Source: Rhodospirillales bacterium (GTDB lineage: Bacteria > Pseudomonadota > Alphaproteobacteria > BOG-932 > Roseiterribacteraceae). Taken from it: a DNA stretch of 35,914 nucleotides. Under the pieces are notes generated by a model. That model was not told the DNA's origin. It searched no databases and saw only the letters and a program-made list of their open reading frames with translations. Positions within the stretch are counted from its first letter, which is position 1. The number at the start of each line of letters is the position of its first letter. Positions 25,155-35,914 of this stretch are shown piece by piece. The stretch is from positions 1 to 35,914 of the forward strand of contig JAQGIE010000264.1 of NCBI GenBank assembly GCA_028291365.1, read 5' to 3'. Made by a program: the position numbers and the translations under genes.

Positions 25155-25358
25155 TTAGCGCAAGTTCGGCAGCCAGTACGTGAGTACTTTCTTGCCGTCT
25201 TGTTCTGCGAGGATCTGGGTGCCGCGATTGCGGACCTTGGCGGACTTGCGCTTGCTGACCAGGCGGTGGCCCGTGAAGGCAGACTTGCACTTCACCTTGC
25301 CGGTGCCGGTCACCGAGAAGCGCTTTTTGGCGCCGCTCTTCGACTTCATTTTGGGCAT
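25155..25358 (-). CDS. rpmI: 50S ribosomal protein L35
   Basis: 67 residues, very basic: '[20 protein letters not shown]', then '[19 protein letters not shown]', the standard L35 sequence. ATG 25358 has GGAG eight bases upstream; the open frame before it is non-coding leader. It is the first gene of rpmI-rplT. infC, often the upstream member of this operon, is not adjacent; a methyltransferase-acetyltransferase gene is there instead. Confidence 0.98.
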
Positions 25359-25379
25359 TTGGGTCTCCGTAATTTTGAG

Positions 25380-25399
25380 GCGACCCCGAAAAGGGTCGC
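25380..25399 (-). promoter_or_regulatory. Leader hairpin upstream of rpmI
   Basis: GCGACCC (25380-25386) and GGGTCGC (25393-25399) form a 7-bp stem with a 6-nt loop in the predicted 5' leader, about 21 nt before the rpmI start codon. It could be a ribosomal-protein control element, but no T-tract follows on the minus strand. Confidence 0.4.
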
Positions 25400-25450
25400 G
25401 AGAGGCGGTTGGGCATGCCCTACAGGCCGTGGCCGCCAAGGAAGCCGGGG

Positions 25451-25479
25451 TTTTTACGGGTCGGAGCCCTGGGGGTCAA
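25451..25479 (-). promoter_or_regulatory. Predicted sigma-70-type promoter of rpmI-rplT
   Basis: On the minus strand TTGACC (25479-25474) and TAAAAA (25456-25451) are separated by exactly 17 bp, a good match to the house-keeping consensus. The -35 box contains the TGA stop codon of the upstream methyltransferase-acetyltransferase gene. Transcription would start near 25444, giving a leader of about 85 nt. Confidence 0.55.
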
Positions 25480-27404
25480 GGCTGGCGGGCGTCGACCCGG
25501 TCGACGCGGCCGGCTTCCGGCCGTCCCTTGGGGCCCCCTGCCGCTCTCGGCCAATGGTTCGGCGACAAAGCGTGCCGAAAAGCGGTCGCCGTCCCCGTCA
25601 GGCTGGCCCGGCGAGGCGCGGTGATGCCGTAATGCTGGCGGCGGCCGGTCACCCAGGATCGTTTGTAGGGGTCGTCGCCGCGCCCAAGTTCGAGGCACCG
25701 CAAGGGCTCGCGCCCGTCCAAAAAGGCGATCATGCGGGCGGTCAGGATCGTGCCGGGCGACCAGCGGTCATAGGCCGGATCGTGGGTCAGCTTGTGGACC
25801 ACCGCGACCCCGTCGGTCGCCGTCCAGATCTGGGCCGCGACCGGCTGGTCGGCGACCGACAGCAGGCCGATCGACAGGCCGGCCCCGCTGCCCATCCGGT
25901 CGACCAGCGTCGTCTGAAAGGCTGGGAACGGCTCGGGCGGCTTCCAGCTGCGCGCATAGAGCTCGTTATAGAGTTGAACCGCGCGTGCGAGCCGGTCGGG
26001 TTCGGTGGCGATCTCGATCGCAACCGGCCCCCGCTCGGCCAGCCTGCGCGTCTTGCGCCGGACGATCTCGCGCAGCCAGCCGGGGCGCGCCTTCCAATAT
26101 TCATCGTAGCCGCCGGCCGGAAATCCGCCCTGCCAGTAGCCGTACTCGTCGTGGCTGAGCACGAACCGCCCGGCTTCGCGCAATCCCGCGAGCAGCCCTT
26201 CGCTGGCAGGATCGTCGGGCGCCAGACAGTCGAGCGCGACAAGGTCCAACGCGCTGTCCTCGCCGATGCAGCGTCCCAGCTCGATCCCGGCGCGCCAGGA
26301 ATCGATGTCGCGCGCCACCAACGGGCGATACCGGCCGGTGTAGCAGTTGGTCAGCCCGTGCAGCGCCAGGCGGCCCCCCTCGTGGTGCTCGCTGCGGCAG
26401 GGCAACAACGCGATCGGGCGCAATCCCTCGGCGAGGACGGCATAGGTCGGCAGGCTGCCTGCAGGTAGCCCGGCGCCTTCCATGGTTGCGAACCAGGCGC
26501 GCCGCGCGAACACATCGTCATGTCCGGCCTCGGCCAGGATCGTCGCGCAGGCGGCCGGCAGATCGCGCTCGCTGCCGAACCAGTGCACGCGCGGCGCGAC
26601 CACCGGCGCCACGCGCGGCGCCGTCCGGATCGGCGCTACGCGCGCGACGAAATGCACGCTGGAGCTGGCGCTGAAATCATCGGCGGCGGCGGGTCGCCGG
26701 CGTCCTTCATGATCGACCAGGCTCAGCGTCTCGAAGCCGGCGCCGTGCAGCTGCGCGAGCTGATCCCCCACCGCGATGTAGTAGGTCAGCATCGAGAAGC
26801 CCGCGCCGTCGTCATTGATGATCTCGTAGGTCGGATCCACCTGCTCGCGGCGGCGATAGACCAGCGAATTGTACAGGTGCTCGAACTGCCGCTTGAGCGA
26901 CCGCGGCTGCAAGGTCGGCTGCAGCGTCGGCCGGCGCACGATGCTGTGATGGTCTCGATTGTGGCTGGAGAAGAGGAACAGCCCGTCCGGCTTCAGGACG
27001 CGGCGGATTTCGGCCAGCACGCGCAATCGGTGCGTGTGCTGCACGCAATCAATGCCGTTGAAGGAGAAGAGCACGAAATCGAAGGACCGATCCTCGGCCC
27101 ACCAGAGATCGCCGGCATCGCCATTCACGAAGCGGGCATTGGTGCGATCGCCGAAACGCCGCCGGCAATGCTCGATCATGGCGCCGGCGTAATCGACGGC
27201 GACATAGCTTTGCACGCAATCGATCAGGCGCTCGGTCGTGCGCCCGGCGCCGCAGCCCAGGTCGAGCAGAGCCGCACCGGGCAGCCGGTCGGCGATCGAC
27301 TCCAAGATCGCCCGCTCGGCCGGAAACAGCCCATCCAGCCGCTGATAAGCGGCCAGGACCGAGGCGGATTCATAGCGTTCGCGATTGCTCTCCATCGTCC
27401 TCAC
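25476..27404 (-). CDS. Methyltransferase / CelD-type acetyltransferase fusion protein
   Basis: A 642-residue two-domain protein. Residues about 20-255 are a class I SAM-dependent methyltransferase: motif I LLDLGCGAG (46-54), acidic D71 (VAVDYAG), motif 'FVNGDAGDLWW', and post-core 'RVLKPDGLFLFSSHN'. Residues about 275-610 are a GNAT of the BioF2-like/CelD group: 'YWQGGFPAGGYDEYW', 'RKTRRLAERGPVAIEI', 'NELYARSWKPPEPF', 'GLLSVADQPVAAQIW', 'VVHKLTHDPAYDRWSPGTIL', 'CLELGRGDDPYKRSW'. CelD-like domains are common in exopolysaccharide and surface-lipid gene sets. The start is GTG 27404 or ATG 27395. The gene stands between gpt and the ribosomal genes; its target is unknown, and the last 40 residues are Pro/Arg-rich and probably disordered. 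Confidence 0.85.
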   Translation of the reverse strand: MRTMESNRERYESASVLAAYQRLDGLFPAERAILESIADRLPGAALLDLGCGAGRTTERLIDCVQSYVAVDYAGAMIEHCRRRFGDRTNARFVNGDAGDLWWAEDRSFDFVLFSFNGIDCVQHTHRLRVLAEIRRVLKPDGLFLFSSHNRDHHSIVRRPTLQPTLQPRSLKRQFEHLYNSLVYRRREQVDPTYEIINDDGAGFSMLTYYIAVGDQLAQLHGAGFETLSLVDHEGRRRPAAADDFSASSSVHFVARVAPIRTAPRVAPVVAPRVHWFGSERDLPAACATILAEAGHDDVFARRAWFATMEGAGLPAGSLPTYAVLAEGLRPIALLPCRSEHHEGGRLALHGLTNCYTGRYRPLVARDIDSWRAGIELGRCIGEDSALDLVALDCLAPDDPASEGLLAGLREAGRFVLSHDEYGYWQGGFPAGGYDEYWKARPGWLREIVRRKTRRLAERGPVAIEIATEPDRLARAVQLYNELYARSWKPPEPFPAFQTTLVDRMGSGAGLSIGLLSVADQPVAAQIWTATDGVAVVHKLTHDPAYDRWSPGTILTARMIAFLDGREPLRCLELGRGDDPYKRSWVTGRRQHYGITAPRRASLTGTATAFRHALSPNHWPRAAGGPKGRPEAGRVDRVDARQP

Positions 27405-27540
27405 GCGAGCGGCCCCAGCAAATTGGGCCGACCGCGTACGAACGCGCGAGTTGGTGACTCATCACCACATGGCGACGGCCGGCGCGTGCAGCGTGATTTG
27501 CGCGGCCGCGGAGGAAGGCGACGATCGAAGCGCTGCGCGT

Positions 27541-28032
27541 TTAATCGCGCGCGCCTTCCTTGATCGGCTTGGCGTATTGCGCTTCGAGATCCCAGGGGAA
27601 ATGGATCCAGGTGTCCTGGCTGACCTCGGTGACGTAGGTGTCGACCAACGGTTTGCCCGCAGGCTTGGCGTAGATCGTCGCGAGGTGCGCCTTGGGCAGC
27701 ATCTTGCGGATCTCGATTGCGGTGGCGCCGGTATCGACCAGATCGTCGACCACGACCCAGCCGGTGCCGTCGCCGATGCCGTCGGCCTGGGCAGGTTTCA
27801 GTACGCGCAGGCCGCGCTGGGTCTGGTGGTCGTAGGACGAGATGCAGACCGTATCGACGACGCGCAGATCAAGTTCGCGCGCGACGATCGCGGCCGGCAC
27901 CAGCCCGCCGCGCGTCACTGCGATGACGCCATGCCACGAATGCAACTCGAGCAGACGCCAGGCCAGCGCCTTGGCGTTGCGGTGCAGCTCTTCCCACGAC
28001 ACCGGGAAGGTTCGTTTCGAAGTCTCGTTCAT
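27541..28032 (-). CDS. gpt: Xanthine-guanine phosphoribosyltransferase
   Basis: 163 residues, closely matching E. coli Gpt in pattern: '[17 protein letters not shown]', '[20 protein letters not shown]', '[17 protein letters not shown]', the PRPP motif [13 protein letters not shown], and '[20 protein letters not shown]', '[10 protein letters not shown]'. It salvages guanine and xanthine by transfer of phosphoribose from PRPP, in the cytoplasm or at the membrane. ATG 28032 has only a weak ribosome site. The gene is probably monocistronic: 88 bp separate it from the divergent DUF1223 gene and 136 bp from the downstream methyltransferase-acetyltransferase gene. Confidence 0.96.
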
Positions 28033-32427: not shown

Positions 32428-33432
32428 ATGTCCGCCCCGAATCCGCAAAAAAACCATCCGCAAAGAACTGGGCCGCAAAAAACCGGGCTGCCCGCAAACG
32501 CGGTCGAGGTGTCAGGTCTGGTCAAGACCTACGCCGGCTCCAAGAAAACCGGGCCCAAGACCGCACTCAAGGGCATCGACCTGGCGATTCCGCGCGGCGC
32601 GATGTTCGGTTTCCTCGGGCCCAACGGCGCCGGCAAGTCGACCCTGATCAACATCCTGGCCGGGCTGGTGGTGAAGACCGCGGGCCAGGCCAAGGTCTGG
32701 GGGTTCGACATCGACCACGACACGCGCCGCGCCAAGGCGTCGATCGGCGTGGTGCCGCAGGAGCTCAATCTCGACCCGTTCTTCACGCCGCGCGAAATCC
32801 TCGAAGTGCAGGCCGGGCTGTACGGCGTGCCCAAGGCGGAACGTCGCACCAACGAATTGCTTGCCGCGGTCGGCCTCGCCGACAAGGGCGACGCCTACGC
32901 GCGCACGCTGTCGGGCGGCATGCGCCGCCGCTTGATGGTGGCCAAGGCGATGGTGCACGCGCCGCCGGTGCTGATCCTCGACGAGCCTACCGCGGGCGTC
33001 GACATCGAACTGCGCCAAGCGCTGTGGCGTTACGTGCGCGAGCTCAACGCGCGCGGCACCACCATCGTGCTGACGACGCATTACCTGCAGGAAGCCGAAG
33101 AACTCTGCGATACGATTGCGATCATCAATCACGGCGAGGTCGTCGCCTGCGAACCGACGCAGACGCTGCTGTCGCGCACCGACGCCAAGGAATTGTGGCT
33201 GACCTTGGATCGCGACCTGGCTTCGCTGCCGCCCTCGCTGGCTTCCTTGTCGGCCGAGCTGCCGTCGCCGCGCCGTCTGGTGATCCGCTACCAGCCGAGC
33301 CGCGCGCAGGTCGGCGAGGTCCTGGCCGCGGTCGCGGCGGCGGATCTGCGCATCGTCGACCTGTCGACCAAGGAAACCGATCTCGAAGACGTCTTCCTGC
33401 AACTGGTACGCGAACAACCCCGAGCGGCATGA
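32428..33432 (+). CDS. ABC transporter ATP-binding protein (no adjacent permease)
   Basis: A 334-residue ATPase. Walker A GPNGAGKS (64-71), Q-loop Q111, signature LSGGM (161-165), Walker B VLILDEP with E186, and H-loop H218 are all intact. An extra Lys/Pro/Gln-rich N-terminus of about 24 residues and a C-terminal accessory region (about 240-334, 'VVDLSTKETDLEDVFLQLV'-like ending) match the ABC-2/YadG-type exporters. Such ATPases are normally followed by an ABC-2 membrane gene; here the next gene is a lipoprotein hydrolase that overlaps it by 4 bases. The permease must be elsewhere, or the pairing has changed. Confidence 0.95.
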   Translation: MSAPNPQKNHPQRTGPQKTGLPANAVEVSGLVKTYAGSKKTGPKTALKGIDLAIPRGAMFGFLGPNGAGKSTLINILAGLVVKTAGQAKVWGFDIDHDTRRAKASIGVVPQELNLDPFFTPREILEVQAGLYGVPKAERRTNELLAAVGLADKGDAYARTLSGGMRRRLMVAKAMVHAPPVLILDEPTAGVDIELRQALWRYVRELNARGTTIVLTTHYLQEAEELCDTIAIINHGEVVACEPTQTLLSRTDAKELWLTLDRDLASLPPSLASLSAELPSPRRLVIRYQPSRAQVGEVLAAVAAADLRIVDLSTKETDLEDVFLQLVREQPRAA

Positions 33433-34469: not shown

Positions 34470-35914
34470 ATGTCAAATCGTTCCAGCCGGCTGCTGCCGG
34501 CACTCGCGTTCGCGCACGACGTCGTCATGGCGACCATCGCCTATCCGGCGGCGCTGTATCTGCGCGTCGGCGACGCGATGTTCGATCGCTGGTACGAAGC
34601 GCTCGAGGCGGGTTGGCCGTTGTGGGTCGCGATCGCCGCGGTCTCGTTCCTCGCCTCGCGACTCTATCGCGGCGTGTGGCGCTACGCGTCGATGCAGGAT
34701 CTGTGGGCGGTGGCGCAGGCGGTGACGATCGCGGTGCTCGCCTTCGTGCCGGTGATGTTCCTGGTCGACCGGCTCGAATCGCTGCCGCGCTCGGCGCCGC
34801 TGATCCTGGGTTTGTTGCTGCTGGTGCTGCTGGGCGGTCCGCGCTTTCTCTATCGCATCGCCAAGGACCGGCGCATGGAGCGCAGGCGCGCATCGCGGCG
34901 CATTCCGGTGCTGCTGATCGGTGCCGGCGACGGCGCCGAATTGTTCATCCGCGCCATGCAGAACGATCCGCTGGCGCCGTACGAGCCGGTCGGTGTCATC
35001 GACGATCTCGGCCGCCGTGTCGGACGCGACATTCACGGCGTGCGCGTGCTGGGTGGCGCACCGGACCTGGAGCGGATCGCGCGCGAGCTCGCCGACAAGG
35101 GCAAGGCGCCGCAACGGCTGATCGTCACCCGCGTCAACGCACCGATTGACGGCGTCGTCCTGCGCCAGCTTTTCGATGCGGCCGACCGGTTGGGCATGAC
35201 CTTGGCGCGCATGCCGTCGCTCGCCGATCTCGACGAGACCGACGGCGAGAACCGCATCCGGCTGCGCCCGATCGCGATCGAAGATCTGCTCGGCCGTCCG
35301 CAGGTGCTGCACGACGAAGAAGCGGTGCGCGCGCTGGTCAAGGGCAAGCGCGTGCTGGTCACCGGCGCGGGCGGCACGATCGGTTCGGAATTGTGCCGTC
35401 AGCTGGCTGGCTTTGCCCCGGCCAAAATGGCGCTGCTCGAAAGCGGCGAGTTCAATCTGTACGCGATCGAAATGGAGCTGGCGGAACGGCCGGACGCACC
35501 GCCGCTTGCCGCCTGGCTCGCCGACGTGCGCGACGCGCCGCGTCTCAGGACGGTGTTCGAGACCGAGCGACCCGAGCTGGTGTTCCACGCCGCCGCGCTC
35601 AAGCACGTGCCGCTGGTCGAATCCAACCCGGCCGAAGGCGTGCTCACCAACGTGATCGGCACGCGCAACGTCGCCGACGCGGCGCGCGCGGTCGGGGCGC
35701 ATGCCATGGTGCAGATCTCGACCGACAAGGCGGTGCGCCCGTCGAGCATCATGGGCGCGGCCAAGCGCGTTGCCGAGGAATATTGCCAGTCGCTCGATCT
35801 CGACAGCGAGACGCGCTACGTCACGGTTCGGTTCGGCAATGTGCTGGGCTCGACCGGTTCGGTGGTACCGCGCTTCGAGCAGCAGCTGGCCAAAGGCGGC
35901 CCGATCACCGTCAC
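34470..35914 (+). CDS. WbpM/CapD-type nucleotide-sugar dehydratase/epimerase, 5' part
   Basis: 481 codons are visible; full-length relatives have about 600-660 residues, so the end lies outside the window. Four transmembrane helices fall at about 12-32, 50-66, 81-100 and 108-122. A first Rossmann-like domain follows (LIGAGDGAELF, about 149-159; 'YEPVGVIDD'), then the catalytic domain with NAD(P) motif TGAGGTIG (298-305), 'VFHAAALKHVPLVE', the active-site S-T-D-K (417-420) and MGAAKR (428-433), and 'VRFGNVLGSTGSVVP'. Family members convert UDP-GlcNAc to 4-keto-6-deoxy sugars for capsule, O-antigen or exopolysaccharide. A surface-polysaccharide cluster probably continues to the right. Confidence 0.95.
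   Translation, partial: MSNRSSRLLPALAFAHDVVMATIAYPAALYLRVGDAMFDRWYEALEAGWPLWVAIAAVSFLASRLYRGVWRYASMQDLWAVAQAVTIAVLAFVPVMFLVDRLESLPRSAPLILGLLLLVLLGGPRFLYRIAKDRRMERRRASRRIPVLLIGAGDGAELFIRAMQNDPLAPYEPVGVIDDLGRRVGRDIHGVRVLGGAPDLERIARELADKGKAPQRLIVTRVNAPIDGVVLRQLFDAADRLGMTLARMPSLADLDETDGENRIRLRPIAIEDLLGRPQVLHDEEAVRALVKGKRVLVTGAGGTIGSELCRQLAGFAPAKMALLESGEFNLYAIEMELAERPDAPPLAAWLADVRDAPRLRTVFETERPELVFHAAALKHVPLVESNPAEGVLTNVIGTRNVADAARAVGAHAMVQISTDKAVRPSSIMGAAKRVAEEYCQSLDLDSETRYVTVRFGNVLGSTGSVVPRFEQQLAKGGPITV

What the first reader, a model, noticed from the sequence alone, without database searches (positions are those of the whole stretch)
25476..27404. Fusion of a SAM methyltransferase with a CelD-like acetyltransferase
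One uninterrupted frame carries both complete domains. CelD/BioF2-like GNATs usually work on surface carbohydrates or lipids, and a methyltransferase in the same chain suggests a bifunctional tailoring enzyme that methylates and acylates one acceptor. It lies 7 kb from a WbpM-like polysaccharide gene, with no obvious partner next to it. This is the best candidate here for an undescribed activity.
Basis: partly seen in the sequence, partly recalled or inferred. Interest (0 to 1): 0.6.

Follow-up and report, generated by a model that had tools for sequence, protein, structure and literature searches.

The report
Fused methyltransferase and FemX-like acyltransferase
One bacterial gene joins two sugar-tailoring enzymes, a methyltransferase and an acyltransferase, that other bacteria make as separate neighbouring proteins in surface-polysaccharide gene clusters, so it is probably a two-step polysaccharide decorating enzyme, in an arrangement that no other genome searched here showed.

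Summary
Minus strand 25476-27404 is one open frame of 642 codons (ATG at 27395 is the likelier start). Residues 1-255 are a complete class I SAM methyltransferase (MT); residues 274-613 are a complete PF13480 acyltransferase, whose modelled fold is a FemX-type tandem GNAT. An Ala/Pro/Val/Arg-rich linker joins them. The gene fills the gpt-rpmI gap; a same-genus genome has other genes there. No second fused protein turned up in about 780 genomes or among the 80 best MT relatives. The halves have separate origins: the GNAT is sister to GNATs of its own family's XrtA/PEP-CTERM exopolysaccharide loci; the MT belongs to a patchy, glycan-cluster MT family. That MT family lies next to a PF13480 GNAT in 13 of 87 loci (12 same strand), scattered over its tree, and those pairs are enriched for sugar de-N-acetylases (9/13 against 9/75, p = 4e-5). 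Best reading: a bifunctional tailoring enzyme for a polysaccharide precursor, possibly N-methylating and N-acylating one deacetylated amino sugar, as NodB/NodS/NodA do for Nod factors. Shared acceptor, acyl donor and product are inferred. Main doubt: a dinucleotide slip in CGCGCG at the junction would split the frame; reads are needed.

The parts
25476..27404 (-). MT-GNAT fusion gene, 642 aa from GTG (639 aa from ATG at 27395)
26640..27404 (-). Methyltransferase domain, residues 1-255 (LDLGCGAGRTT, FSFNGID, FSSHNR motifs)
   Evidence: Pfam; alignment with 27 invariant columns; model block-mean pLDDT 85-98
26586..26639 (-). Ala/Pro/Val/Arg-rich linker, residues 256-273, with a +1-frame TAG at its start and no Shine-Dalgarno-like sequence
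   Evidence: sequence
25566..26585 (-). PF13480 acyltransferase, residues 274-613, FemX-type tandem GNAT
25479..25565 (-). C-terminal Arg/Pro-rich tail, residues 614-642, low model confidence
   Evidence: segment 348-376 of that model below pLDDT 50; role unknown
27541..28032 (-). gpt-like phosphoribosyltransferase, the upstream edge of the insertion slot
   Evidence: Pfam Pribosyltran; DNA homology to G001 ends here
25155..25439 (-). rpmI (ribosomal protein L35), the downstream edge of the insertion slot
   Evidence: sequence; DNA homology to G001 resumes at about 25460

Best explanation
A bifunctional polysaccharide-tailoring enzyme. The C-terminal FemX-type tandem GNAT acylates an amine on a cytoplasmic polysaccharide precursor, and the N-terminal class I methyltransferase methylates the same precursor. 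It arose when an EPS-type methyltransferase was joined to a divergent copy of the lineage's own XrtA/PEP-CTERM-locus GNAT, and it now occupies an accessory slot between gpt and rpmI. Shown: the fused frame, both complete domains, their kinship, and the repeated genomic coupling of the MT family with PF13480 GNATs and sugar deacetylases. Inferred: the two activities, that both act on one glycan, and that the acceptor is an amino sugar freed by a deacetylase encoded elsewhere.
For: Intact frame with both domains. GNAT fold matches FemX at Z 20.9 over 298 residues, then MprF synthase domains. The GNAT is sister to its own family's GNATs (SH-aLRT 99); in G001 that gene sits with TIGR03013, PrsK, PrsR and PrsT above their cut-offs and DUF218. 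MT-GNAT adjacency in 13 of 87 loci, 12 same strand (binomial p 0.0017), with only 3 more loci having a GNAT farther away in about 11 kb, scattered over the MT tree (11 changes). The order MT then GNAT with TGACATG coupling occurs in L039. Deacetylases co-occur. The own genome has a separate PIG-L, GT4, GNAT, MT operon on C136. HfsK, a FemX-like GNAT of Caulobacter, modifies holdfast polysaccharide (PMC5362036).
Against: No second genome carries the fusion, so conservation cannot be tested. The GNATs next to MTs elsewhere are only about 15% identical to this one and lie outside its clade, and the fusion's nearest MT relative, L015, has no GNAT beside it. No deacetylase or glycosyltransferase flanks the fusion. 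The MT fold matches N-, O- and C-methyltransferases alike. Neither activity was tested.
Confidence: 0.6

Rival explanations
1. The two domains act on different positions of the repeat unit (for example O-methylation of one sugar and N- or O-acylation of another). Fusion only secures co-expression or co-localisation at the membrane, with no shared acceptor atom or channel.
For: The MT family also occurs without a GNAT neighbour in most loci (74 of 87 have none within 600 nt), so it works alone on glycans. GNAT-only relatives are common in XrtA loci. The MT fold gives no N- versus O- preference.
Against: The deacetylase enrichment around MT-GNAT pairs points to amine chemistry, though the GNAT alone would explain it.
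Confidence: 0.35
2. Two separate genes in the living cell: the assembled frame has lost a CG pair in the CGCGCG run at codons 254-256, so the MT would end at the TAG and the GNAT would start about 50 nt later at a GTG.
For: The +1 frame has a TAG exactly where related MTs end. The assembly is a 271-contig draft. All homologues are separate proteins.
Against: Only a 1-base gain or 2-base loss in a few bases would do it. The supposed intergenic stretch has no Shine-Dalgarno-like sequence and reads as an Ala/Pro/Val/Arg linker with GC-rich third positions. The insert fills the gpt-rpmI gap.
Confidence: 0.12
3. Cell-wall or lipid amino-acyl transfer: the FemX/MprF-like fold uses aminoacyl-tRNA to modify peptidoglycan or phospholipid, with the MT methylating that product.
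For: The best fold matches are FemX, FemA and MprF synthase domains.
Against: Closest sequence relatives sit in EPS loci. The family model is PF13480, and tandem GNATs with other donors share the fold (mycothiol synthase Z 14.2, glucosamine N-acetyltransferase Z 13.9).
Confidence: 0.08

Closest known systems
HfsK (CC3689) of Caulobacter crescentus, a FemX-like tandem GNAT that modifies holdfast polysaccharide (PMC5362036)
   Same: FemX-type tandem GNAT; homologues coupled to EPS synthesis; proposed to act on amines exposed by the deacetylase HfsH
   Different: No methyltransferase domain. HfsK carries a C-terminal extension needed for membrane association and involved in c-di-GMP binding, and no equivalent was tested here. 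I did not have its sequence to compare.
GNATs of XrtA/PEP-CTERM exopolysaccharide loci in the same bacterial family
   Same: Sister clade to the fusion's GNAT half (support 99, 33-38% identity)
   Different: Stand-alone proteins of about 350 aa, next to DUF218 and (in G000 and G001) a glycosyltransferase, with no methyltransferase attached
MT-GNAT gene pairs of polysaccharide clusters (Reyranella L115, L039, L040, Luteitalea L127, Chelatococcus L035)
   Same: Same MT family beside a PF13480 GNAT, several with a de-N-acetylase
   Different: Two separate genes, and the GNATs belong to other PF13480 branches (about 15% identity)
NodB-NodS-NodA module of Nod factor synthesis (PMC5080398)
   Same: Deacetylase, SAM methyltransferase and acyltransferase logic; the MT half scores just above Pfam's NodS cut-off (25.2 against 24 bits)
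   Different: Many other MT models score far better, the acyltransferase is PF13480, and nothing here makes chitin oligomers

Membership tests
PF13480 Acetyltransf_6 (CelD/BcsL-like) | Score above Pfam's curated cut-off over the domain | tested here: met
   96.2 bits against 22, profile positions 4-143 of 143
PF13480 Acetyltransf_6 (CelD/BcsL-like) | Role in cellulose or EPS synthesis | not testable with these tools
   Only kinship to XrtA-locus GNATs is shown
FemABX-type tandem GNAT fold | Two GNAT lobes aligning along the whole FemX chain | tested here: met
   Z 20.9, rmsd 4.0, 298 aligned of 335, model range 7-344
FemABX aminoacyl transferases | Aminoacyl-tRNA as donor | not testable with these tools
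   Fold match alone does not show the donor
Class I SAM-dependent methyltransferase | SAM-binding motif and full Rossmann domain above curated cut-offs | tested here: met
   Methyltransf_25 72.8 bits against 27; LDLGCGAGRTT conserved; fold Z about 21
NodS N-methyltransferase | NCBIfam NodS equivalog cut-off | tested here: not met
   NF041650 24 bits against 300
XrtA/PEP-CTERM EPS GNAT clade | Groups with GNATs located in XrtA EPS loci | tested here: met
   Six-row clade, SH-aLRT 99; locus markers above cut-off in G001
XrtA/PEP-CTERM EPS GNAT clade | Located inside such a locus | tested here: not met
   The fusion lies between gpt and rpmI
HfsK-type c-di-GMP effector | c-di-GMP binding through C-terminal arginines | not tested
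   An Arg-rich tail is present but binding is unknown

The most novel reading that the evidence does not exclude
A single enzyme that N-methylates and then N-acylates the same deacetylated amino sugar of an exopolysaccharide precursor: a fused counterpart of NodS and an acyltransferase. Together with the scattered deacetylase/MT/GNAT gene sets it would mark a widespread module that makes N-methyl-N-acyl amino sugars.
Probability: 0.2. Interest if true: 0.6.

Novelty: new variant of a known kind. Interest (0 to 1): 0.4.

Why it matters
FemX-like GNATs are common in exopolysaccharide loci, yet their acyl donors and acceptors are unknown even for HfsK. A fusion that ties one to a methyltransferase, plus the repeated MT-GNAT-deacetylase gene sets in unrelated phyla, gives a concrete and testable guess about the chemistry: amine modification of an amino sugar. 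If right, it would predict N-methylated, N-acylated sugars in bacterial matrices, where they would alter charge and hydrogen bonding and so cohesion and adhesion.

Tried and rejected
Chance or shadow frame: rejected. Chimeric assembly: unlikely, since the insert runs from the gpt stop to just upstream of rpmI and the flanks are syntenic with G001. Homologous descent from the MT-then-GNAT operons such as L039: rejected, as the GNAT half groups with XrtA-locus GNATs instead. Synteny with polA as in L015: only polA matched besides the fusion, so not pursued. The first genome-contig scan with the single protein found nothing because the patterns were too specific. The first structure job used an alignment in which the GNAT rows had slid onto the MT part, so its GNAT half was uninformative; the second job repaired this. 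A profile of the GNAT against PDB sequences gave only noise. Papers on N-methylacetamido sugars turned out to describe chemical methylation analysis, not natural sugars. Searches for papers on PIG-L with MT and GNAT returned none. An attempt to search the Acidobacteriota failed on the tool's handle rule.

Full report
OBSERVATION. On the minus strand, 25476-27404 is one open frame of 642 codons. It is the only place in its genome with both domains in one frame. Pfam gives a class I methyltransferase (Methyltransf_25, residues 47-141, E 3.7e-20) and PF13480 Acetyltransf_6 (445-582, E 2.5e-27), both over their cut-offs. Third-position GC stays at 0.75-0.95 over the whole frame. The likelier start is ATG at 27395, matching relatives' N-termini.

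IS IT A TRUE FUSION? Relatives' methyltransferases end at about residue 255 of this protein, and stand-alone GNATs begin at about 273-282. Between them lies VAPIRTAPRVAPVVAPR, a typical linker composition. The insert runs from the gpt stop to about 20 bases upstream of rpmI: DNA similarity to the same-genus genome G001 stops at window 27545 and resumes at 25460, and G001 carries unrelated genes there. One weakness remains: the +1 frame has a TAG at codon 256, behind a CGCGCG run, so a 2-base loss or 1-base gain in a few bases would have created the fusion artificially. There is no Shine-Dalgarno-like sequence before the candidate GNAT start. I give the artefact about 12%.

STRUCTURE. The MT half models at block-mean pLDDT of about 85-98 over residues 1-260 and matches many small-molecule methyltransferases with Z near 21, both N- and others. 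The GNAT half, modelled alone (mean pLDDT 77.9, pTM 0.78), is a two-lobed tandem GNAT: FemX Z 20.9 over 298 residues, FemA 19.3, aminoacyl-tRNA-dependent peptide synthases 19.8, MprF synthase domains 16-18, then mycothiol synthase 14.2 and glucosamine N-acetyltransferase 13.9. These act on amines (FemX, mycothiol synthase, glucosamine N-acetyltransferase) or on lipid hydroxyls (MprF), by established knowledge of those families. The two domains were not modelled together with a useful alignment, so a shared channel is untested.

ORIGIN OF THE HALVES. In a tree of 52 GNATs the fusion's GNAT is sister to the five GNATs of its own bacterial family (SH-aLRT 99), including one in its own genome (contig C86, 37% identity). 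In G001 that GNAT lies beside DUF218 and near TIGR03013, PrsK, PrsR and PrsT, all over their NCBIfam cut-offs, with a glycosyltransferase resembling TIGR04063 (below cut-off): an XrtA/PEP-CTERM exopolysaccharide locus. The MT half belongs to a family with FSFNGID and FSSHNR motifs; its nearest relative is a lone MT in another alphaproteobacterial family (L015, 45%, SH-aLRT 95). The family is rare in the class: 6 of 384 genomes.

COUPLING ELSEWHERE. No other protein carries both halves: 385 class genomes, 398 phylum genomes, and the 80 best MT relatives from a scan of 84,980 species. As separate genes, however, this MT family is directly beside a PF13480 GNAT in 13 of 87 loci, 12 on the same strand (p 0.0017), while only three more loci have one elsewhere in the held flank. 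Both orders occur. In L039 the MT stop and GNAT start read TGACATG. The loci lie in Acidobacteriota, Bacteroidota, Verrucomicrobiota, Pseudomonadota and an archaeon, and the label needs 11 changes on the MT tree, so the pairing arose repeatedly. Named plasmid records show glycosyltransferases, a polyprenyl glycosylphosphotransferase and MurJ-type flippases around.

DEACETYLASES. PIG-L de-N-acetylase sits directly upstream of the MT in L039, L040 and L115, and PF01522 deacetylases near the pairs in L086, L127 and L128. Among GNAT-adjacent MT loci 9 of 13 have a deacetylase in the held flank, against 9 of 75 others (Fisher p 4e-5; 5e-4 after collapsing three close relatives). I chose this test after seeing the first examples, and flank lengths vary, so treat it as suggestive. 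The own genome also has a PIG-L, GT4, GNAT, MT operon on contig C136, with other branches of both families.

MECHANISM. Established precedents: HfsK, a FemX-like GNAT, modifies holdfast polysaccharide and may acylate amines exposed by the deacetylase HfsH (PMC5362036). In Nod factor synthesis deacetylation precedes N-methylation by NodS, and acylation by NodA comes late (PMC5080398). The best reading is therefore a two-step tailoring enzyme for an EPS precursor (0.6). That both act on one nitrogen is the more daring version (0.2). Donor, acceptor and product are unknown.

VERDICT. Real, apparently unique in the genomes searched, made of known parts: a new variant of a known kind. Interest 0.4.

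Noticed in passing
25460-27545: The gpt-rpmI gap is a variable slot: the fusion here, but in same-genus G001 (L154:4580-7114) three tandem paralogues of a predicted secreted protein (shared stretches such as RQIYQCL and RLRAEGFRDDG).
   Followed up: partly
L022:15-3940 (own genome, contig C136): A separate operon-like set of PIG-L deacetylase, GT4 glycosyltransferase, PF13480 GNAT and methyltransferase, all minus strand, echoing the chemistry proposed for the fusion.
   Followed up: partly
L129:418-2565: A 716-aa protein with two PF13480 matches, a GNAT-GNAT tandem fusion in another family of the phylum.
   Followed up: partly
L065, L083, L108, L117: Tandem duplicate copies of the FSFNGID methyltransferase lie side by side in several unrelated genomes.
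   Followed up: no
L112:3978-4919: Next to an MT-GNAT pair in an Acidobacteriota genome is a bacterial protein matching GINT1_N (glucosamine inositolphosphorylceramide transferase, E 1.2e-64), which also points to glucosamine transfer.
   Followed up: no
34470-35914: WbpM-like gene (Polysacc_synt_2) is cut off by the contig end, so its polysaccharide cluster cannot be read here; a DrrA/NodI-like ABC ATPase (32428-33432) lies upstream.
   Followed up: partly
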